IMG/VR virus record: IMGVR_UViG_3300004097_000010
Span: 1-48,599 of that record
From: a virus
Direction: 5' to 3' (one strand)
DNA: 48,599 nucleotides
A program made the translations under genes and the position numbers. Shown piece after piece: positions 15,103 through 48,599 of the stretch (position 1 is its first letter; every line of letters starts with the position of its first letter). The notes below the pieces were generated by a model. The model saw nothing but the letters and a program-made list of their open reading frames with translations. It was not told the origin of the DNA and searched no databases.

Positions 15103-16734
15103 TTAAATTCGTGCGATTCTATTTTGTATACTATCTAGTAGCGGTGCGTATTCCTCATTACGTACTACCATACCACTAGGGTCTATATTTAAATAACAGT
15201 TAACCTTACTGTGTCCTGTTGGACTGAACTTAGGTTGGTTGGCAAAAGAACCCACTTCTGCAAGTGATGCATGTAAGAACTTCGTTTCGTCAGTTAACCC
15301 ACCTTTGTGTTTACCCGGACCTGTGGCATCTGATTGAGCAACCATTTTACTAGTTATTTTGATAAATTTATTATCTCCAGAACTACTAACGCTACTAACC
15401 TCGCCATGACCGGTATTAATCTTCATTATCACACTACTTGTTAAGATGCGATCCATTGCACTTTCTATGTCCTTTAACGTTATCTCACGTTTTACATTAC
15501 TAGTTAATTTAAATGTAAGTGTGAATATTGCTTTAACTACATCTAACAGAATATAACGCAATACTGTTAAACGTTTGTCGTACATACTACTAACATCAGT
15601 TCTAACTATTCTATCGGTCATAGTTTCGAGGATATAAATGAATAGCTCGTATATGTCATCACAGCGAATATTCTCATACGCTAATGACTCCTGTACCATC
15701 CCATCAATATATTCATCCAACGAACTAAGGTGAGCGTCTATATCTTCTACTAATTTACCTTCATTTGCCGCCACTTTAAATATAACGTGACCCAATAGCA
15801 CCTTCCATAAACGTGTATGGTCTATGAAGTCCGCTTGAATACGGTCGGGGAAATGGTCTACTATATAAAACAGTGCGCCAACCATAGATGCAGTAGTTGT
15901 AGTATACTCACTACGCTTAATAGCTATATGTAGGTTAGACGGTATATAACCCTTACCTTTAATGCTGTTAGGCATGATACCTGTAGGTTTACATATTACC
16001 CAGTCTTTAGCAGGATATAACTCTTCAGTTATCTCTAATGCACCATCGCCGACCTTTACGTCAGCACCACCAAAACGCTTAAATGTTTCAGTAAGACCAA
16101 ACTTACAGAACATGTAATGTATTAATGTAGAGTTTACCGTTATGCGTAATCCGTTAATTCTAGCTAGTTTACCACGTGGAACTTTACCGTGATGTAACTG
16201 AGACCAGATAACACTAACGGACTCTCGCTGACCATTTGCTACGAAGTTATGGGTGATACGTTCGAATGTTAATTTATCCCTAGTAATGGGCATAAATAAC
16301 TTATCGTTATCTACCGAAAATAGTCTATCTGTAATGACTGGATTCACTACGAATTTACTACCACGAATAGAGATAGTACCTGCATCACCAACGAACGGTA
16401 AGAATAGGTATCTAGGATTCATCTGAATAGGACGTGCATCATCAGGGCCCTGAAATTCAAACAAGTATTTAACTAAATATATATCACTTTTAGCTAAATC
16501 GAACACTTCTCGTTTAAATCGTTTTCTAGTTACTTCGTTATATTGTTCTTGTGGCGTACATCGCTTGTAGCCTAGATATCGTAACCCCGGCGGAAAAGAA
16601 ATAGCCGCACATTTAAATACTCTGTCTATATATAACTCTACGTGTTTCATCTGCTCTACTACTAGTCCGTCTGCTAGCAATGGATTGATTTTGGGCACAT
16701 GTTTATGTATTTCGTCAAACAGTCTAGTATCCAC
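15103..16734 (-). CDS. Probable phage RNA polymerase subunit (beta-like)
   Basis: This 543-residue protein resembles the split beta subunits of phiKZ-type multisubunit RNA polymerases. Its segment DAGTISIRGSKFVV (about 116-129) mimics the GTFIINGTERV strand pair of bacterial beta, and the size and location next to the capsid gene match phiKZ gp123, a non-virion polymerase subunit. If so, it works with other subunits to transcribe middle and late phage genes. It starts at GTG with TTAGGAG seven bases upstream. The 19-base gap to the next gene suggests cotranscription. It could instead be another phage protein with a similar strand pattern. Confidence 0.5.
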   Translation of the reverse strand: MDTRLFDEIHKHVPKINPLLADGLVVEQMKHVELYIDRVFKCAAISFPPGLRYLGYKRCTPQEQYNEVTRKRFKREVFDLAKSDIYLVKYLFEFQGPDDARPIQMNPRYLFLPFVGDAGTISIRGSKFVVNPVITDRLFSVDNDKLFMPITRDKLTFERITHNFVANGQRESVSVIWSQLHHGKVPRGKLARINGLRITVNSTLIHYMFCKFGLTETFKRFGGADVKVGDGALEITEELYPAKDWVICKPTGIMPNSIKGKGYIPSNLHIAIKRSEYTTTTASMVGALFYIVDHFPDRIQADFIDHTRLWKVLLGHVIFKVAANEGKLVEDIDAHLSSLDEYIDGMVQESLAYENIRCDDIYELFIYILETMTDRIVRTDVSSMYDKRLTVLRYILLDVVKAIFTLTFKLTSNVKREITLKDIESAMDRILTSSVIMKINTGHGEVSSVSSSGDNKFIKITSKMVAQSDATGPGKHKGGLTDETKFLHASLAEVGSFANQPKFSPTGHSKVNCYLNIDPSGMVVRNEEYAPLLDSIQNRIARI

Positions 16735-30123: not shown

Positions 30124-31392
30124 CTACGATTTAACTTTAGACAGGATATCATCTGATAAACCTACCAATGCAGTAGATGTATTATCTGTTATTTTCATAA
30201 TATAGCCAGTCAAAGTAACGCTCATTGTGATAGCTTGTAGCATAGCTGTCATTGCAGCTTCACGAATTGCCTTAGTTTCTTTATCAGTAGACGGCCCTTC
30301 TTTCATAAACGTCTTAAACTCCTTCTCATACTTAGCTAATGTAGATTTAGTCAAGTCGTTAACCTCAACAACATCGTCATATATATCTCGTAGTTTAACA
30401 GACGCTGCCATAATACCTTTGGTATCATTGGTTGGATTATTCGGTGAGATTACTTCATACGTCCCTACCTTAGCCTCTTTTAATTTAGGATTGTTTATGT
30501 AAGCAGGTTTTGCTACCTTAAATAGATGTTTTATAAACGTAGCTATATTGAAGTCCGTTATTGCATCCCCTTTAGCTCCAATGTCATCTAAAGCTTTCAT
30601 CGACTGACTATTTAAAGCTAGGGCTAAAAATTTACCACCCATAACTTCTATACCCACGTACTCCGTACCTTTGATTTTTAATTCTATCGCAGGCGTGTCA
30701 GGGCCACCATCAAGAGAATCTCGTACATCCATCACGCCGCGGAAAATAGCCTTTTTAGAATCGTTATTGGCTAATAGTTTACTAATTTTACCAACCGACT
30801 CGTCTAAAGTTACGATATAGTCCAACCATGAATCTACTTCAGTACGCATAGCTTTAGTTATGCTATTGATACTAGCCAGTGTAAACATAGTACCGTCAGG
30901 TAACATCAGACGTTTATCTGTAAGTGGTATTGATGTAAGAGGTTCGGCCACTTTATCAGCAACTAACTCTTCCACCTTCTTAGTCTTTTCTTCAACTGCT
31001 TTGGTAGACGATTTAAAATTACTAGTAGAACTACTAGAACTACTAAACATACTAGATATAAAACTTACTAATTTACGTATCATGTCCGCTATGAAGTCAT
31101 ATACGGCCTTTATTGCACTACCTACACTTTCAACCGATATACTGTTAGTACCTATAATAGTTTCTAACGCTATATCTAGGGGACGTAACGCATCTTCAAT
31201 ATGAGAACTAACCAACGCCACTTCTAGACTAGTAGGACTATGGTCTTCAACCGAAACAATCAAAGCTGCTTCTACTTCAGTTATTGTAGTTAACGCAATT
31301 TGTGCGTTATCTATTCTGGTACATAAATCTTCTATACTTAGTTCGTATGGGAATACCGAATTACCTAATATTGCATCTCTTGTAACGATCAT
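30124..31392 (-). CDS. Internal head protein precursor (Ser/Thr-x-Glu cleavage family)
   Basis: I start at the second ATG (31392), correctly spaced from AAGGAA, giving 422 residues. The N-terminal part (1-88) is acidic, with several S-x-E sites, and ends at SISVE|SVGSA. The next segment (about 95-118, IKAVYDFIADMIRKLVSFISSM) is a hydrophobic or amphipathic helix. This plan is shared with four other proteins of the window. In phiKZ-type phages such proteins are packaged in the head's inner body, cut by the prohead protease and ejected with DNA. Sequence identity to the other members is low outside the plan. Confidence 0.6.
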   Translation of the reverse strand: MIVTRDAILGNSVFPYELSIEDLCTRIDNAQIALTTITEVEAALIVSVEDHSPTSLEVALVSSHIEDALRPLDIALETIIGTNSISVESVGSAIKAVYDFIADMIRKLVSFISSMFSSSSSSTSNFKSSTKAVEEKTKKVEELVADKVAEPLTSIPLTDKRLMLPDGTMFTLASINSITKAMRTEVDSWLDYIVTLDESVGKISKLLANNDSKKAIFRGVMDVRDSLDGGPDTPAIELKIKGTEYVGIEVMGGKFLALALNSQSMKALDDIGAKGDAITDFNIATFIKHLFKVAKPAYINNPKLKEAKVGTYEVISPNNPTNDTKGIMAASVKLRDIYDDVVEVNDLTKSTLAKYEKEFKTFMKEGPSTDKETKAIREAAMTAMLQAITMSVTLTGYIMKITDNTSTALVGLSDDILSKVKS

Positions 31393-31420
31393 TATCATTT
31401 CCTTAACTTAGACGGATAAT

Positions 31421-31444
31421 AAGGCAAGGACTCCCCCTTGCCTT
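31421..31444 (-). terminator. Terminator between internal-protein genes
   Basis: AAGGCAAG and CTTGCCTT form an 8-bp stem with loop GACTCCCC, followed on the minus strand by ATTATCCGTC, which differs from TTATGCCGTC mainly by one missing base. It lies 24 bases after the stop of the gene ending at 31468. Confidence 0.7.
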
Positions 31445-31467
31445 AAATATTTATAACTTTTCTATAA

Positions 31468-32805
31468 CTAGTCTTTGTGAAGACTTAAACTTTTACTACA
31501 CGCAGTCATTGCAGCGCGAGAAACGGCTACAACATGTTTAGTTAAAGATAGTTGAGTACTACCATTTAAACGTACGAACGCGGTATTGAAAGATAGTGCA
31601 GAGTTGTAGTAGGGCTTGATTTCATTATCGAAATCTTCGTCTTTACTAGCCGACTTGTATGTAGACTCTAAACCATCAGTAGCTTTCTTCATTTTATCGC
31701 CAGCGTCTTCAGCTTTCTTGAAGTTACTAGATTTATTGTATTCGATGATACCATCGCACAATTCGATAATAGAGTCGGCCATACCAATTACTTCTTCAGG
31801 AGTTATAATTGAAATGCTACCTGATTCTTTAGCTTTACCAGGTTTCTGTTTAGTATTCTTCAATTCTAAACGGATTTTACGAGAAGCGGCAGCTTGTTCA
31901 AGTACAGTTCTACCTGCAGTTATATGACGACTTGTTAGGAATAAAGATTCGTTACCTAAAAGGTCCACTTTCTTCATGTCTTTAGTATCAACAAAACGAG
32001 TGTCAGCGCCGACTGCATCTTTAACTACTCTACTTACTGCCGAGATAGCTGTACCCATTTCACTAGCAGCAATTAGTGCTTGGATATCTAACTCTGCGTT
32101 AGCTTTAGTATCAACACGGAACTTATCGATTATACCGGCCTGTTCAACGCCCGCTTCAACTACACCTTTAGCGTATTCGTTATAAACCGCATTAGTAACT
32201 TCTAATAATTTACCTAAACCAGAAGCAATATCTGAACCACTAGATGGTGCATTTTCGTCTACAGACAATGTGAAAATTTCACGCCCTAACTCAACTTTAG
32301 ATTTATCTGTAGATTTACCTACAGACGCTTCTGCACGGTCACGTAATTTAACAGCCGCTTTACGAACACCAGGAACTGAGTCAGTTAACCATTTCCAAAA
32401 TTCAGCAATTTTACGCCACATTTTAAGAACGGCATTTTTGATAGCATCCCAAACAGACTTAGCGATATTTTTAATTGCTTCTGTTGAAATAGTGCCATCA
32501 TCATTACTTTCTAATGAAGGTAATAATTCTTCAGTGCTAACGTCAGAGCCAGCTACCGCTAAACCAACTGCAGTGTCGATAAAAGCGAGGTCGGTATTTT
32601 TACTACCAGATACGTTACGTGTAACAAATTCTAAATTCTCTAAACCTAAAGCAATGTCGGTGGCACGAGATAGTTCGCCGCTGATAGTTTCTACTTCAGC
32701 AAAGCATTCCATAGTCATTGATACAGCATGTTGCTGTTCGTTATCGTCAAGTACTACCGCATTTAACGTTTGTGGCGCTTGGCCTAAATTAAATCTATTT
32801 AACAT
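31468..32805 (-). CDS. Internal head protein precursor, paralog A
   Basis: The 445-residue protein has an acidic N-terminal region (1-109) ending in GTISTE|AIKNIAKSVWDAI, followed by an amphipathic helical segment with many Trp and Lys (about 111-140, MWRKIAEFWKWLTDSVPGVR). The centre is helical and Lys-rich; the end reads ACSKSLSLHKD, matching the CDKSLSNYK end of the 32897 and 42495 proteins. These shared start and end blocks show common descent. Expected role is a cleaved, packaged head protein, possibly ejected with the DNA. GGAGAAA precedes the ATG. A hairpin terminator lies upstream, so it is probably transcribed separately. Confidence 0.65.
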   Translation of the reverse strand: MLNRFNLGQAPQTLNAVVLDDNEQQHAVSMTMECFAEVETISGELSRATDIALGLENLEFVTRNVSGSKNTDLAFIDTAVGLAVAGSDVSTEELLPSLESNDDGTISTEAIKNIAKSVWDAIKNAVLKMWRKIAEFWKWLTDSVPGVRKAAVKLRDRAEASVGKSTDKSKVELGREIFTLSVDENAPSSGSDIASGLGKLLEVTNAVYNEYAKGVVEAGVEQAGIIDKFRVDTKANAELDIQALIAASEMGTAISAVSRVVKDAVGADTRFVDTKDMKKVDLLGNESLFLTSRHITAGRTVLEQAAASRKIRLELKNTKQKPGKAKESGSISIITPEEVIGMADSIIELCDGIIEYNKSSNFKKAEDAGDKMKKATDGLESTYKSASKDEDFDNEIKPYYNSALSFNTAFVRLNGSTQLSLTKHVVAVSRAAMTACSKSLSLHKD

Positions 32806-32827
32806 GGTGGATATTTCTCCGCAAAAA

Positions 32828-32855
32828 TAGGATAGGACATTATGGTCCTATCCTA
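32828..32855 (-). terminator. Terminator between paralogous internal-protein genes
   Basis: TAGGATAGGAC and GTCCTATCCTA form an 11-bp stem around ATTATG, followed on the minus strand by TTTTTGC. It lies between the stop at 32897 and the start at 32805 and would reduce read-through from the upstream gene. Confidence 0.75.
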
Positions 32856-32896
32856 ATAATTAATTAAAAGGTAATCTAAATTAAGAAACTAAAATA

Positions 32897-34228
32897 CTAC
32901 TCAGCTACTTTATAGTTAGATAATGATTTATCACAAAGGCTAAGTACTGATTTAACAGTAGACGCAATGTGACCCGTTAAAGTAATGCCCGGATTATCGA
33001 TAGTAACTAATGCAACGTTAGCAACTTTAATCTGTGTGTCAGCGAAGTTCTTAACTTCAGTTTTAGTGTCGTCGCTGTAATTACTAGTAACAGCATCACC
33101 AGCCTTGATGATAGCTTCTTTAGCAGATTCAACTTTACTGTATTCTTTATTGAAACCTTCAATAATTTCAACAATAGAGATAACTTCATCACAAGCTTTG
33201 ATAATTGCGCTAGTAGCTAAAGTACTTACTTTAGTAGTACCTTTAATATCTTTAGGCTTCTCAACAGAAGTAGTCATTGTAACTTTGAATGCTGAAATAG
33301 CTTTAGCAACGCCGGCTCTATCTTCAGTTGGCGTACTAGCTAATTCACTACTAACTACCATCTTGTTACCCGGTAAGTGATCGCTGTGTGTATACGCAAC
33401 ACCTACTGCCACAAAACGTTTATCGCCAGTTAGTTTATTTTTAGATTTTGCGCCCGTAGCTGCTACAGTTACTAAATCGGCTAAATCTTTATAACCATTA
33501 GTTGGTACAGTGTCTTGGAATTTAAGTTCATCGGCAATTTTTTCAAGATTTTTAATGCGGCTATCGTTAGTTTTAGATAAGTATGTAGTCGCAGCGCCTT
33601 TAAGTGAACCAAGTACGTCATCTATAGAAGCTACAGAATCGTTGATAGTCATTGCTTTAACTAAACCACCTAATTCAAAATCTTTCTTATCGATAGTACC
33701 GATATCGCCATTTTCAGCTTTATCTTTAATTGATTCAGCACGCTTTTTGATTGCAGGTAAAGCTTCCATTAATTTACGGAACCATGCTTTAACGTATGCG
33801 ATCGAAGCACGGATTGCTTTAGTGATAGCAGCCCAAACAGATTTAGCAACTTCTTTAATACCTTCAACAGCGATAGTTGTTGAGTTAACACGCTCAGATG
33901 CGCCGCCAAAAGATTCAACTGATGGAGTAACTGACTCATGCATACCTAAACGAGTAGTGTATGATTCAACGCCTAGTTGTAAAAATGTACCAGAAGTACG
34001 ATCTAAACCGCCATCTTCTAATGATAGTAATGCAACTTCACCAAGACCTTCAAGGCCTACCGCGATAGATTCCATAGATAAGATGTCGTTATTACATTCT
34101 TCGATGTCAGTGCCAGCTAACAATAATTCGTTAACAGTACTTTCTACTGCGATGGCAGTAGATGATAACGCAACTGATAAAGTCGCTGTTACTTGTGAAC
34201 CTTGGTTGAAATATTTTGATATAGACAT
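32897..34228 (-). CDS. Internal head protein precursor, paralog B
   Basis: The 443-residue protein has a Ser/Ala-rich N-terminal region with several S-x-E sites (SME at 51-53, SVE at 103-105) ending at TTIAVE|GIKEVAKSVWAAI (E122). The helical segment that follows (about 124-160, AYVKAWFRKLMEALPAIKK) and the block KKRAESIKDKAE..GTIDKKDFELGGL are nearly identical to the 42495 protein, as is the end LCDKSLSNYK. It is thus a true paralog. The expected mature form starts near residue 123 and is basic or neutral. It starts after the 177-residue gene with TAGGAA upstream. Confidence 0.7.
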   Translation of the reverse strand: MSISKYFNQGSQVTATLSVALSSTAIAVESTVNELLLAGTDIEECNNDILSMESIAVGLEGLGEVALLSLEDGGLDRTSGTFLQLGVESYTTRLGMHESVTPSVESFGGASERVNSTTIAVEGIKEVAKSVWAAITKAIRASIAYVKAWFRKLMEALPAIKKRAESIKDKAENGDIGTIDKKDFELGGLVKAMTINDSVASIDDVLGSLKGAATTYLSKTNDSRIKNLEKIADELKFQDTVPTNGYKDLADLVTVAATGAKSKNKLTGDKRFVAVGVAYTHSDHLPGNKMVVSSELASTPTEDRAGVAKAISAFKVTMTTSVEKPKDIKGTTKVSTLATSAIIKACDEVISIVEIIEGFNKEYSKVESAKEAIIKAGDAVTSNYSDDTKTEVKNFADTQIKVANVALVTIDNPGITLTGHIASTVKSVLSLCDKSLSNYKVAE

Positions 34229-42494: not shown

Positions 42495-43814
42495 TTAAAC
42501 TGATTTGTAGTTAGATAATGATTTATCACAGAGGGTTAAGATGTCGTTACAAATACTAGTAGAATAACCTGCAACTTTAGTATCTGCATTGCCGGTAGTA
42601 GTACCTACATAATTTACAAAAGTTATAAATAACTTACCTAAAGCTTTGGCTTCAGGTATAAGGTCTTCGTCTGTAAGTTCTTCAGTAACTTCTTCCCCTA
42701 CCTTCACTAACGATTTCTTATAATCTTCAATTTTATCAAACTGTTTATTATAATCTTCAATCTTAGCAATAGTAGATAATACAGTATCACACACTGCTAT
42801 AATGTCAAGTACTTCGATGGTCGGATATTTAGTAGTAGATTTAATAGTGTCTTTATCTTCACTAAAGTCAGTCCACTTCACCTTAGTGTTACGTAATTGA
42901 CTTGAACGTGCTACTAAAGAATCCTTCAACGTAGTCGATGTCGGTGGCGTATACGATGATACTATTAATGCTTTATTTCCGGGATACTCGTCACTACGTG
43001 CGTAGATATACCCATCGTCATTATATCGCTTATCTCCACCCCATACTTTAACTAAACTGTTATTCATAACGTTGGTTTTAATTAATTCTTTATTAAAGTC
43101 ATTAATGGTATTTTCTACATCCACTACGGTCGATAGTTTAGATACACCCTTTTTTACTATAGTAACGACTGGGTTAAGTTTCTTTATAGCTGTAGTACTC
43201 ATGTCACCAAACACGTCAGTAACTAGAGAGTCTATACTAGAACTAATGTCTGTAACCTTACCTACACTATTTCGTACATGAAGTTTACTCGCTAAACCAC
43301 CTAACTCAAAATCTTTCTTATCGATAGTACCAGATTCTTTTTCGGCTTTAGCTTTAATTGACTCTGCTCGTTTTTTCAAGGACGGTAATGAACTAGTAAT
43401 TTTACTAAACCATTTTCTAATAAACGTCATAGCTGATTCTATAGCTCGTTTAATAGCATTCCATACTTCAGTAGCTACTGTACGAATACTTTCATTCGAT
43501 ACATCATGTTGTTTATAGCCTAACTGGTCGGTAAATGAATGAACTGTTCGCTTTAACATATTTCTATTAACCGTACCTACCGGCGGATTGGCGCTAGTAA
43601 AGTCAGCTATAGATTCAAGACCTACGGCAATATTTTCTAACTGTACATATTCGTTAAGTGAATGGTCGTAATTTCGTTCGGCTACTGACGCTTCTATTAA
43701 ACGCATTTCTACTGAAGGTTGTAACGTATCACTTTCGTTTACTTCAAATAAGTTAAGTGATTCTACGGATATGGAAGGTTTACCTGTGATTAGTTGACGG
43801 ATACGTGTTGACAT
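42495..43814 (-). CDS. Internal head protein precursor, paralog C
   Basis: The 439-residue protein is a close paralog of the 32897 product. After a 108-residue N-terminal region ending at HDVSNE|SIRTVATEVW it has the helical stretch TFIRKWFSKITSSLPSLKKR (130-149), the block KKRAESIKAKAE..GTIDKKDFELGGL and the end LCDKSLSNYK. It also has an S-x-E site at SVE18. Expected to be cut by a phage protease and packaged in the capsid. It starts with GAGGTAG upstream, just one base after the metallopeptidase stop. Confidence 0.7.
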   Translation of the reverse strand: MSTRIRQLITGKPSISVESLNLFEVNESDTLQPSVEMRLIEASVAERNYDHSLNEYVQLENIAVGLESIADFTSANPPVGTVNRNMLKRTVHSFTDQLGYKQHDVSNESIRTVATEVWNAIKRAIESAMTFIRKWFSKITSSLPSLKKRAESIKAKAEKESGTIDKKDFELGGLASKLHVRNSVGKVTDISSSIDSLVTDVFGDMSTTAIKKLNPVVTIVKKGVSKLSTVVDVENTINDFNKELIKTNVMNNSLVKVWGGDKRYNDDGYIYARSDEYPGNKALIVSSYTPPTSTTLKDSLVARSSQLRNTKVKWTDFSEDKDTIKSTTKYPTIEVLDIIAVCDTVLSTIAKIEDYNKQFDKIEDYKKSLVKVGEEVTEELTDEDLIPEAKALGKLFITFVNYVGTTTGNADTKVAGYSTSICNDILTLCDKSLSNYKSV

Positions 43815-45175: not shown

Positions 45176-46765
45176 ATGAAGGCTAATTTCAAACCTGAAG
45201 ATGTTGAACACTACGAATGTATACACGCTACGTATCATAGATGTCAGAACTATAGCGGTCATGACTTAGTATTAGTAAAAGAGCATGTACATCTAAAAGA
45301 TGGTACTATAGTACCTAATGTAAGAATGGTTGAAGATTATAAGCGGCACTACTGGATTACGCGTGACGGCTTTCAAACTCATACTGACAAAAAGGAATGG
45401 GAGGATGTTGCGCGGTTAAAACGTTCTACTTCTACTCAGGCTAACCTAGAAGCTAATATTGCACGAGCTTTAAACAAAAATATTAAAGGCGCACGTTTAA
45501 GTATGCTTTCCCGTAGTCCATATCTCTATGGTAGCGACATCACGTCTACTACGTTAATAAAACATCGTTATATGGAAAATGCTCCGGACGTTACTTCTGT
45601 AAGTAGTTCGGCGGTACTAGATGTAGAGACTAACACTGTACGTAAAAATCTAACTGACTCAGACCTTTTAATTATTGAAAATATTGAAGATAAGATAGCT
45701 AGACAAACCCTCGAATGCGATAGGTTAGAGCGACAAATTAAAGAGTCGGATGGCGAAATACTTCTTACGACTAAAGAAAAGGCGGCGTTACAAAAGGAAC
45801 ACGAAACTATACGTAAGAGTATACTACGTAAGGTGGAGAGTGTTAAGGAGATATCTGAACAAATTATTTCAGGCTCGTTAACTATGGGTAGTAAAGCGTT
45901 CTTAGCAGTATCTAAATGTTGGTTACGTAAACACGGTGATGTTACTGGTGATTTACAGACTCTATTCGAAAAGTATTTGGGTAAATATAAGAAAGAACGT
46001 GACATTACTTTAGAAGTAGAGATAGTTGATAATGATGCGGAAATAACTAAAGCGTTATTAGCTAAGGCCCATGAATGGAAACCCGACTTCATTGCTATAT
46101 GGTTTATAAACTTCGATATACCTAAGCTAGTACAATCGTTACAACGACACGGCATCGACCCTGCTCAAGTATTTAGTGACCCAAGTGTTCCTGATAACTT
46201 TAAAAGTTTTCGTTATAAAGAAGCCCAACAACAGAAGACCACCGCTACTGGTAAAATTACTACTAAACATTATTGTGACCTATGGCACGTCGTACATGCC
46301 CCTGCAAGCTTCTATTTTGTAGATGCAATGTGTTTGTATAAACTAGTTCGCGTAACTGAACCTATGCAACCTAGCTATTCTTTAGATTCTATATTAGGTA
46401 TCAATTTAGATTTAGGAAAACTTAGATTTGAAGAGGCTGACCAATATACTGGCGTTGAATGGCATCAGGTAATGCAGACTAACCATCAGTTAGAATATCT
46501 AATCTATAACGTATTCGATTGCATCGGCGTAGAGTTGTTAGAAGAAAAGAATAGAGATTTAACTACGTTACGTATGTTAGTGGGTCATAGTGATTTAGAC
46601 CGCTTTACATCGACTCCTAGACGTCTTGCTGACGATTTACATTTCGTTTGTCTGGAAGATGGTAAAGTAATGGGTTCTACCTCAGATGAGATGGTAGATG
46701 AATTAGATAAACAGGTAGTTCCAATGACGGATTGGATGAACGAATGTCATATATTAGCAGCGTAA
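45176..46765 (+). CDS. Family B DNA polymerase, exon 1 (exonuclease part)
   Basis: The 529-residue frame holds the 3'-5' exonuclease domain: Exo I AVLDVETNT (D149, E151), Exo II WFINFDIPKL (D314) and Exo III YNVFDCIG (Y444, D448). A 70-90 residue charged helical stretch (about 165-235) is inserted right after Exo I. The polymerase domain is absent; the frame runs into an intron with an in-frame TAA. The 3' exon at 48237 resumes with motif A. The true exon end is just before the stop, near codons for HILAA, but I could not fix the splice site. The start ATG has GGAG upstream. It is divergent from the metallopeptidase gene. Confidence 0.82.
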   Translation: MKANFKPEDVEHYECIHATYHRCQNYSGHDLVLVKEHVHLKDGTIVPNVRMVEDYKRHYWITRDGFQTHTDKKEWEDVARLKRSTSTQANLEANIARALNKNIKGARLSMLSRSPYLYGSDITSTTLIKHRYMENAPDVTSVSSSAVLDVETNTVRKNLTDSDLLIIENIEDKIARQTLECDRLERQIKESDGEILLTTKEKAALQKEHETIRKSILRKVESVKEISEQIISGSLTMGSKAFLAVSKCWLRKHGDVTGDLQTLFEKYLGKYKKERDITLEVEIVDNDAEITKALLAKAHEWKPDFIAIWFINFDIPKLVQSLQRHGIDPAQVFSDPSVPDNFKSFRYKEAQQQKTTATGKITTKHYCDLWHVVHAPASFYFVDAMCLYKLVRVTEPMQPSYSLDSILGINLDLGKLRFEEADQYTGVEWHQVMQTNHQLEYLIYNVFDCIGVELLEEKNRDLTTLRMLVGHSDLDRFTSTPRRLADDLHFVCLEDGKVMGSTSDEMVDELDKQVVPMTDWMNECHILAA

Positions 46766-46806
46766 CATTAATATTAGGTAATTAAAATATTAATGGACAC
46801 GTTGTT

Positions 46807-47778
46807 ATGTTTATAATTGGTAAAAATAAGGTTCCTTGGTTACCCGATTTCTACTTTATACCTAACTATATTAAATACGCTATCAATATAGATGGTGATA
46901 TAGTTAATGTCACTAATGGTAAGTTTAAAGTATGGACGGTACAGCAAGGACAAAAAGAAAAGAATATAAAGGGTGGATATAGGGTAACTGGCGGAGTTAA
47001 TGATAAAGGTAAGTACGGTGGTATTAGTAGACATCGCGCATTAGCTTTAATTTTCATTCCATGTCCCGGCAACCCTAAAGATTACGTAGTGAATCATAAA
47101 AATGGTATCCCCGGCGATGACTGGTTAGATAATCTAGAATGGATGTCTCGTGCTGAAAATAACCAACATGCCATTGATAACGGTCTGTGTCCTAATAGCA
47201 CCACTCCTGTTCTATGTAAAGATTTGAATACTGATAAAATAACTAGGTATATATCTGTTGCTGAATGTAGTCGAGATATAGGTATTATAGATGCCACTAT
47301 TCGTAATAGACTTAATCGTAAATCTGGACGTAGACCTATTGATGAGTTAGCATTTAAGTACGATGACGAGTCTGAATGGTTAGAGTATAGTAACGAAATT
47401 TCTATACCTCCTAAGGCTATATCTGTTTGTGCTAGAAATATATTTAGTGGTGAGATTATAATTGCGGATAGTATCTGTAACCTGTCTAAGGCTACGGGCA
47501 TTTCACCTGCAGGCATTCGTAAGTCGTTAGGCAGGATTATAGCTACAAACGGATTTAATGTTGCGGAATTCACTACTGGTTTAACGTGGCCAAATCATAC
47601 CGATAGACATTTAGAGATATATACAAAATATACTATTAGTCCTCCCAGTGGGGTAGTTGTCAACAATATAGATACTGATGAGGAAATATTCTTCACAGGC
47701 TCCGTAGAAGCAGCCAAATACTTTAATATATCTCCTAGTCAACTACGTACACGTATTAGAAATAAAAAAACCTTATAA
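46807..47778 (+). CDS. Intron-encoded HNH homing endonuclease
   Basis: The 323-residue protein is an HNH nuclease with NUMOD-type modules. After a NUMOD4-like start (WLPDFYFIPNY..YAINIDGDIVN) comes the HNH core: SRHRALALIFIPCP, VVNHKNGIPGDDWLDNLEWMS and ENNQHAIDNG (about 75-122). Three repeats with NUMOD1-like DNA-binding units follow, at about 130-175 (VLCKDLNTDKITRYISVAEC), 202-242 and 280-320. It would cut an intronless polymerase allele to spread the intron. The gene lies 5' of the ribozyme core, inside the intron. Confidence 0.82.
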   Translation: MFIIGKNKVPWLPDFYFIPNYIKYAINIDGDIVNVTNGKFKVWTVQQGQKEKNIKGGYRVTGGVNDKGKYGGISRHRALALIFIPCPGNPKDYVVNHKNGIPGDDWLDNLEWMSRAENNQHAIDNGLCPNSTTPVLCKDLNTDKITRYISVAECSRDIGIIDATIRNRLNRKSGRRPIDELAFKYDDESEWLEYSNEISIPPKAISVCARNIFSGEIIIADSICNLSKATGISPAGIRKSLGRIIATNGFNVAEFTTGLTWPNHTDRHLEIYTKYTISPPSGVVVNNIDTDEEIFFTGSVEAAKYFNISPSQLRTRIRNKKTL

Positions 47779-47820
47779 CAAACTTCTTTTTTCTTATTAT
47801 AAACTAAATGAACATTTAAG

Positions 47821-48236
47821 TCCCCCTATAGAGTAATCTATAGTGGAAACAGACATTTAATTGCTGGGACCTACTTAGAGCTGATTCACCACGGTATCCT
47901 CGAAAGAGAGATACTACGGTTTAAAAACGAATCGGATTGAGGAACCGTGAGACCTAAGGTCTCCTTTAGCAGCGAAGCTCCTAACCACAAGTACCTAACG
48001 GCGTTTGCCTAGGTAGTGTATGGAGAACGTTCAACGACTATCGAAAACTACACCTGACCTTAGTCAGACTGAATGACACTGGTATAGAATCCAGTGGTTA
48101 CTGTAAAGTAATTAAAGTGAGTAGAGTAGAGCCCAAGTGGGTAGGTAGCAACCTTTAAATCGAAAAAGTGTCCCGCCTAACATGAGTGTTAGGCGGATGA
48201 TATAGTCTCGACATCTAGTTAAATGCTAGAGCTTTG
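47821..48236 (+). ncRNA. Group I intron ribozyme core in DNA polymerase gene
   Basis: Conserved core strings of a group I intron are present. The P/P4 strand is in TTAATTGCTGGGACC (47857-47871), the Q/R side in AGCGAAGCTCCTAACCACAA (47971-47990), the P7 5' strand in GTTCAACGACTA (48029-48040) and its partner in GATATAGTCTCGAC (48199-48212; GACTA pairs TAGTC). P8 is the hairpin CCGCCTAACA/TGTTAGGCGG (48173-48196) and P9 the small stem TCTAG/CTAGA (about 48214-48230). The intron probably begins soon after 46750, contains the HNH gene, and ends near 48236 (…GCTTTG). The exact 5' splice site and guide sequence were not resolved. Confidence 0.85.
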
Positions 48237-48593
48237 CAGATAATGCTGCGGAATAGATTAACGTCCTATTTGAAGACTCGTGTAACCCTACCGACCTATC
48301 TAAGAAAAGATACTGGTATAAAGGTAATTAAAGAATTTCCTGATATGGAAATAGACTTAAGTATACATGTAGCCGATTTAGATGTAGCGGCCTCGTATCC
48401 TAGTACAGGCCATTTCATGAATATATCGAAAGAAACTACATGGAGGGAGTTGTGTAGAATCAAAGACCGTTCGGATGGTCTACAAAGACAAGTAAGTTTA
48501 AACCTCACGTCACCAATAGTTAACGCTACAGAGATATGTGTAACCATGTTAAAAATGCCTACATTCGATACGTTGTTAGCAGACTTCATGTAA
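48237..48593 (+). CDS. Family B DNA polymerase, exon 2 (motif A), partial
   Basis: This 118-residue frame continues the polymerase after the intron. It has HVADLDVAASYPST, which is polymerase motif A (DxxSLYPS-type), with the catalytic Asp in DVAASYPS (near residue 50). TGHFMNISKETT follows, a pattern known to me in jumbo-phage polymerases. Motifs B and C (KxxxNSxYG and DTDS) are missing; the frame ends at TAA, six bases from the window end. The remaining polymerase must therefore lie beyond, behind a second intron or as a separate gene, unless the last codons hold a sequencing error. Confidence 0.8.
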   Translation, partial: QIMLRNRLTSYLKTRVTLPTYLRKDTGIKVIKEFPDMEIDLSIHVADLDVAASYPSTGHFMNISKETTWRELCRIKDRSDGLQRQVSLNLTSPIVNATEICVTMLKMPTFDTLLADFM

Positions 48594-48599
48594 AAAAAA

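What the first reader, a model, noticed from the sequence alone, without database searches (positions are those of the whole stretch)
46765..48239. Group I intron with triple-NUMOD HNH nuclease in the polymerase gene
The intron sits between the exonuclease domain and motif A of a family B polymerase, a position likely to be highly conserved and thus a good homing target. The nuclease gene is 5' of the whole ribozyme core, which is less usual than insertion in a peripheral loop, and carries three NUMOD-like repeats suggesting a long recognition site. A stable stem, CATTAATATT/AATATTAATG (46766-46795), near the intron 5' end could shape the P1/P2 region or hide the nuclease start.
Basis: partly seen in the sequence, partly recalled or inferred. 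Interest (0 to 1): 0.66.

Follow-up and report, generated by a model that had tools for sequence, protein, structure and literature searches.

The report
Mobile intron in jumbo-phage DNA polymerase
[quoted passage not shown] this is a new member of a known kind of mobile element, and relatives at the same site in other jumbo phages, with and without the nuclease gene, show how it is built.

Summary
The intron runs 46738-48280 (1543 nt), 27 nt further 5' and 41 nt further 3' than stated. Joining GATTGGAT^ to ^TGTAACC restores one polymerase frame (AT|T, Ile of D-W-I-V-T-L-P) that aligns without extra residues to phiKZ gp82-type family B polymerases. Rfam finds a group I core at 47806-48229 (34 bits, below the curated cut-off of 50, E 1.8e-6). 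Exon GGAU pairs with IGS GUCC at 47820; P2 and P7 covary across relatives. The 323-aa HNH nuclease lies between the 5' splice site and the IGS, so in the P1 loop. That layout is usual in this family, and PhiPA3 carries a nuclease-less version of the HPP-Temi intron. The same codon is occupied in five other IMG/VR contigs; a second site 32-34 codons downstream is used more often; two contigs have both. The stem at 46766-46795 is neither P1 nor P2: with flanking pairs it encloses the nuclease start codon, and such leaders are significantly structured across the family. Closest known: I-HmuI-type DNA polymerase introns and PhiPA3 gp210. New member of a known kind; splicing and nicking are inferred, not shown.

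The parts
45176..46737 (+). DNA polymerase exon 1 (phiKZ gp82 type, phrog_3011), ends GATTGGAT^, second base of an Ile codon
   Evidence: phrog_3011 E 5e-148; junction from alignment to intronless relatives
46738..48280 (+). group I intron, 1543 nt
   Evidence: frame restoration and gap-free alignment; Rfam RF00028; terminal G and the 3' motif GAAGA..G shared with many relatives
46734..46737 (+). P1 5' strand in exon 1 (GGAU), U.G pair at the splice site
   Evidence: GGAU or GAU conserved in relatives
46742..46747 (+). possible P1 extension, 5' strand (GAAUGU), partner ACAUUU 47812-47817
   Evidence: 33 of 500 shuffles as good in the window; 0 of 500 in Temi and L008
   Evidence: z -3.4, z -3.7 in a shorter frame; family trend against control genes
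46807..47778 (+). HNH homing endonuclease gene, 323 aa, in the P1 loop; catalytic H97, conserved N109, N118
   Evidence: HNH_3 E 7e-7 and NUMOD1 E 9e-5; invariant residues; Foldseek I-HmuI 1u3e E 1.3e-10
47206..47313 (+). NUMOD1-like repeat 1 (aa 134-169)
   Evidence: Pfam NUMOD1; beta-beta-alpha-alpha unit
47425..47526 (+). NUMOD1-like repeat 2 (aa 207-240)
   Evidence: beta-beta-alpha-alpha unit in the model; no Pfam match on its own
47653..47760 (+). NUMOD1-like repeat 3 (aa 283-318)
   Evidence: Pfam NUMOD1 E 0.026 on its own; beta-beta-alpha-alpha unit
47806..48229 (+). ribozyme core as matched by Rfam
   Evidence: Intron_gpI 34 bits, E 1.8e-6 in 1.8 kb, 4.9e-5 in the whole window
47820..47823 (+). 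internal guide sequence GUCC (P1 3' strand)
   Evidence: same sequence in L011, L066, L084, PhiPA3, Temi, L088 and others
47826..47843 (+). P2 hairpin CUAUAGA/UCUAUAG
   Evidence: compensatory changes across relatives
48036..48041 (+). P7 5' strand GACUAU (R element)
48173..48196 (+). P8 hairpin CCGCCUAACA/UGUUAGGCGG
   Evidence: read from the sequence; Rfam alignment
48202..48207 (+). P7 3' strand AUAGUC (S element)
48281..48593 (+). DNA polymerase exon 2, with motif A-like VADLDVAASYPS, to the stop codon
   Evidence: phrog_3011 E 1e-29; alignment

Best explanation
It is a mobile group I intron. The transcript folds its core 3' of the nuclease gene; the IGS GUCC at 47820 reaches back over a loop of about 1.1 kb to pair with exon GGAU; an external guanosine attacks after U46737, the freed exon attacks after G48280, and the polymerase message is restored. 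When the nuclease is made, it nicks or cuts intronless polymerase genes of co-infecting jumbo phages at or near the conserved TGGAT^ site, and repair from the intron-bearing copy inserts the intron. The hairpin in front of the nuclease start limits ribosome entry into the P1 loop so that P1 can form. Shown here: anatomy, splice sites by comparison, conserved catalytic residues, site occupancy in relatives, predicted leader structure. Inferred: splicing, nicking, homing and repression.
For: Spliced frame aligns without gap. Group I core in the window and in the 12 nuclease-bearing relatives tested with Rfam. P1 and covarying P2 and P7. Same codon occupied in L011, L066, L084, L086, L119. Nuclease-less and nuclease-bearing versions of one intron at one site, PhiPA3 and HPP-Temi, differ by the nuclease gene placed between the 5' splice site and the IGS. 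Catalytic His aligns with H82 of PhiPA3 gp210, whose H82R mutant does not nick (PMC11620839). Fold of I-HmuI. Each base of TGGAT at the site is kept in at least 74 of 76 relatives. Leaders: mean z -2.23 against -0.55, Shine-Dalgarno pairing 0.74 against 0.51 in control genes.
Against: The Rfam score is under the curated cut-off. No RNA data. P10 was not identified. The window's own Shine-Dalgarno is weak (AUGGAC) and only half paired (0.50), so repression there rests on AUG pairing (0.56) and overall stability. The structure model has a low pTM (0.41), so the order of domains is firmer than their packing.
Confidence: 0.93

Rival explanations
1. The intron splices but the nuclease is inactive or has lost its target, so the element is now inherited vertically and no longer homes.
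For: Nuclease-less introns at both sites (L011, L119, PhiPA3, L088, L112) show that nuclease genes are lost, or absent, often.
Against: Full-length ORF, all invariant HNH residues kept, three DNA-binding repeats kept.
Confidence: 0.12
2. The ribozyme is dead and the polymerase is made as two polypeptides, from exon 1 and from a start in exon 2.
For: An exon-2 ORF with a TTG start exists (48234); the Rfam score is modest.
Against: Both polypeptides would carry intron-coded residues; P1, P2, P7, P8 and both splice sites are intact, and divergent relatives keep the pairing.
Confidence: 0.04
3. It is an intein or an in-frame insert of the polymerase rather than an RNA intron.
For: A split polymerase B with an HNH gene has been read as an intein in another jumbo phage (MIJ3, PMC6892783).
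Against: The exon 1 frame stops at 46763-46765, the nuclease has its own start codon, and a group I core follows it.
Confidence: 0.01

Closest known systems
I-HmuI, I-BasI and I-PfoP3I group I introns in phage DNA polymerase genes
   Same: Group I intron in a phage DNA polymerase gene with an HNH nicking nuclease; I-HmuI is the only significant structural match
   Different: From established knowledge those polymerases are family A. The I-PfoP3I ORF starts in P6a and spans P7 (PMC3428280); here the polymerase is a divergent family B enzyme and the ORF is in the P1 loop
PhiPA3 gp210 and phiKZ gp179 introns in RNA polymerase beta-subunit genes
   Same: Same nuclease family (29-36% identity), same layout of nuclease gene then core; gp210 nicks the intronless allele and hinders phiKZ (PMC11620839)
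   Different: Other host gene; nucleases of DNA polymerase introns form their own group (91/89)
Pseudomonas phage HPP-Temi and Escherichia phage Goslar DNA polymerase introns
   Same: Same gene; HPP-Temi has the closest annotated nuclease (34% over 98%), the same IGS and layout
   Different: Inserted 32-34 codons downstream at motif A; nuclease has an N-terminal extension
Translational control of T4 I-TevI and Aeh1 mobE
   Same: RNA structure encloses the ribosome binding site or start of the nuclease; for td this protects splicing (PMC3014915)
   Different: I-TevI is a GIY-YIG enzyme in another loop of the intron and mobE is free-standing; here the control is only predicted

Membership tests
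Group I intron | Catalytic core with P3-P8 and the P7 guanosine site | tested here: met
   RF00028, 34 bits, E 1.8e-6, full model 1-253, but under the gathering score of 50; P7 GACUAU/AUAGUC, with GACCAU/AUGGUC in relatives
Group I intron | U.G pair at the 5' splice site through an internal guide sequence | tested here: met
   GGAU/GUCC, conserved in relatives
Group I intron | Intron ends in G and the exons join in frame | tested here: met
   G48280; gap-free alignment
Group I intron | P10 pairing with exon 2 | tested here: inconclusive
   Looked for by eye upstream of the IGS; only a distant UGU/ACA seen
Group I intron | Self-splicing RNA | not testable with these tools
   No RNA data
Group IA subgroup | P7.1/P7.2 elements between the P7 5' strand and the P3 3' strand | tested here: inconclusive
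   About 120 nt lie between them and the P7 sequence resembles T4-type introns, but subgroup models were not available
HNH homing endonuclease of I-HmuI type | HNH motif residues | tested here: met
   HNH_3 above its cut-off; H97, N109, N118 invariant in 13 proteins; H97 aligns with gp210 H82
HNH homing endonuclease of I-HmuI type | C-terminal NUMOD DNA-binding repeats | tested here: met
HNH homing endonuclease of I-HmuI type | Cleaves or nicks the intronless allele | not testable with these tools
   Needs purified protein

The most novel reading that the evidence does not exclude
In nucleus-forming jumbo phages, placing the nuclease gene in the P1 loop behind a start-codon hairpin may make splicing and nuclease synthesis mutually exclusive outcomes of one transcript: ribosomes moving through the loop would break P1, and in some relatives the ORF even ends inside the guide sequence. 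Because these phages separate transcription from translation, splicing could finish before export, and only unspliced exported RNA would yield nuclease, which could then act against polymerase genes of co-infecting rivals as gp210 does against phiKZ.
Probability: 0.2. Interest if true: 0.6.

Novelty: new member of a known kind. Interest (0 to 1): 0.36.

Why it matters
It gives exact splice sites and layout for a family of introns in the replicative polymerase of phiKZ-like phages, where the papers I could search treat only the RNA polymerase introns in detail. The natural series (empty site, nuclease-less intron, nuclease-bearing intron, two introns in one gene) at two nearby sites is a ready test set for how introns gain nucleases, shift sites and affect rival phages.

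Tried and rejected
Rfam at gathering threshold: nothing. The 46766-46795 stem as P1 or P2: rejected. A covariance model of my own was not built because I expected full cores to exceed the calibration limit; covariation was read directly for P1, P2 and P7 instead. P10: not found. Nuclease tree by insertion site: sites 1 and 2 are not resolved from each other. Long-range P1 extension: strong in Temi and L008, fair in L066 site 2, marginal in the window (33 of 500), no better than shuffles in three others, so stated only as possible. Literature search for nuclease genes in phage P1 loops: nothing usable found. Some literature look-ups failed because terms were under three characters. Sigma-70 promoter-like sites near the nuclease gene are no more frequent than in shuffles.

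Full report
What is there. The open frame of a phiKZ gp82-type DNA polymerase (45176-46765) breaks off, a 323-aa ORF follows (46807-47778), then a non-coding stretch, then the rest of the polymerase frame to a stop at 48593. Exon 1 and exon 2 match the same PHROG family back to back, up to profile position 462 and from 463 to 565. PhiKZ-type polymerases are a divergent branch of family B related to T4 polymerase (PMC7544198). The window is a whole IMG/VR contig; its other large genes match phage families of which several are labelled head proteins.

Splice sites. Joining after T46737 and before T48281 gives DWIVTLP, and the 624-residue product aligns to FLC9, LucasX and phiKZ polymerases with no gap at the junction. 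Intron 46738-48280 is 1543 nt, splits the Ile codon AT|T, follows a U and ends in G.

Ribozyme. Rfam gives RF00028 over its whole length at 47806-48229, 34 bits, E 1.8e-6 in 1.8 kb and 4.9e-5 in the whole window; this is under the curated score of 50. Relatives score 34 to 92 bits. Exon GGAU pairs with IGS GUCC (47820-47823). P2 changes on both sides between relatives (CUAUAGA/UCUAUAG, UGUGUA/UACACA, CUCAGCCG/CGGCUGAG, CCUAUCCA/UGGAUAGG, CAUCAAGU/ACUUGAUG), and P7 goes from GACUAU/AUAGUC to GACCAU/AUGGUC. In that script four relatives (L066 site 1, L084, L119, Goslar) were offset by one base at the exon end, which spoils only their printed P1 line; corrected ends of the first three are. P10 was not identified.

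Where the nuclease gene sits. It lies between the 5' splice site and the IGS, so in the P1 loop. The best independent support is a natural pair: the PhiPA3 DNA polymerase gene holds a 344-nt intron without nuclease gene (GGAT^TAAATATTAGTCCC..), and HPP-Temi holds a 1722-nt intron at the same place with nearly the same core and with the nuclease gene between GGAT^TAAATAT and ..TTTTAGTCCC. The relatives fetched through the nuclease (phiKZ 179, PhiPA3 210, 2050HW, FishSpeaker, EL, Raoultella VB_ZK_P1, vB_pir03, Totoro, Yong XC31, Goslar, HPP-Temi) all have the Rfam core 3' of the nuclease gene.

Occupancy. Of 80 IMG/VR polymerase loci, 65 run uninterrupted through both sites. Site 1, the window's codon, is occupied in L066, L084, L086 and L119; site 2, at motif A, in L065/L067, L066, L072 (the same contig as L008), L079/L080, L088, L106, L111, L112, L117 and L120. 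L011 from an earlier scan has introns without nuclease genes at both sites, and its frame reads through when exons 1 and 2 are joined. L066 has nuclease-bearing introns at both. In the phage collection 267 of 272 records cover at least 80% of a junction-spanning query; the exceptions among the rows shown are Goslar and vB_PQ1, and PhiPA3 is joined across its gap. I did not inspect every record. The site itself is strongly conserved: each base of TGGAT in at least 74 of 76 aligned polymerases. Site 2 comes in two versions, VAD| and VADLD|.

Nuclease. HNH_3 scores above its Pfam cut-off and NUMOD1 just above it. H97, N109 and N118 are invariant in 13 relatives, and H97 aligns with H82 of gp210, the residue whose mutation abolishes nicking. 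The only significant solved match is I-HmuI (Foldseek E 1.3e-10; phmmer E 0.0022). Nucleases of DNA polymerase introns group apart from those of RNA polymerase introns (91/89), but sites 1 and 2 are not separated.

The stem at 46766-46795. Alone it is not unusual (z -1.5). In the whole leader it is the top of a longer hairpin, 46751-46810, that pairs the nuclease AUG (z -3.4; z -3.7). Across 18 nuclease leaders the fold is stronger than in 50 other gene starts, mostly of the same phages (mean z -2.23 against -0.55, p 1e-4), and the best Shine-Dalgarno is more often paired (0.74 against 0.51, p 8e-4), at similar Shine-Dalgarno strength. G+C differs between the sets (0.31 against 0.41); the z-score allows for this, the pairing probability does not. 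T4 I-TevI and Aeh1 mobE are controlled in this way, and for td the effect is to protect splicing (PMC3014915). In the window the Shine-Dalgarno is weak, so the claim there is softer.

Judgement. A mobile group I intron with an HNH nuclease in a phage polymerase gene is a known kind. What is added here is the host gene class at this resolution, the P1-loop layout shown by a natural pair, the two neighbouring sites with all allele states, and the family-wide leader structure. Splicing, nicking and repression remain inferences.

Noticed in passing
L043 2918-3261 (PhiPA3 NC_028999.1, gene 085): The PhiPA3 DNA polymerase gene contains a 344-nt group I intron without nuclease gene (Rfam 71.7 bits); the annotated CDS stops at the intron and exon 2 (from L043:3262) is not annotated as part of it.
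   Followed up: partly
L066 7404-10684: One polymerase gene with two nuclease-bearing introns separated by an exon of only 97 nt.
   Followed up: partly
L011 3379-3800 and from 3904: Polymerase gene with two introns without nuclease genes, at the same two sites.
   Followed up: partly
L084, L066 site 2, L106, L008: The nuclease C-terminus (NLGPP-like) is encoded by sequence that also forms the guide GUCC, so ORF and guide overlap; in the window the ORF stops 41 nt before the guide.
   Followed up: partly
window 15103-16734 (-): Gene of phrog_2943, labelled 'polymerase' (E 6e-160), no Pfam match. The gp82-type protein ends about 70 aa after motif A, so the rest of the palm may be encoded elsewhere; whether this gene is that part was not tested.
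   Followed up: no
window 30124-34228 and 42495-43814 (-): Several related internal head protein genes (phrog_2497, 12254, 6807).
   Followed up: no
window 48592-48599: The contig ends in an A run directly at the polymerase stop codon.
   Followed up: no
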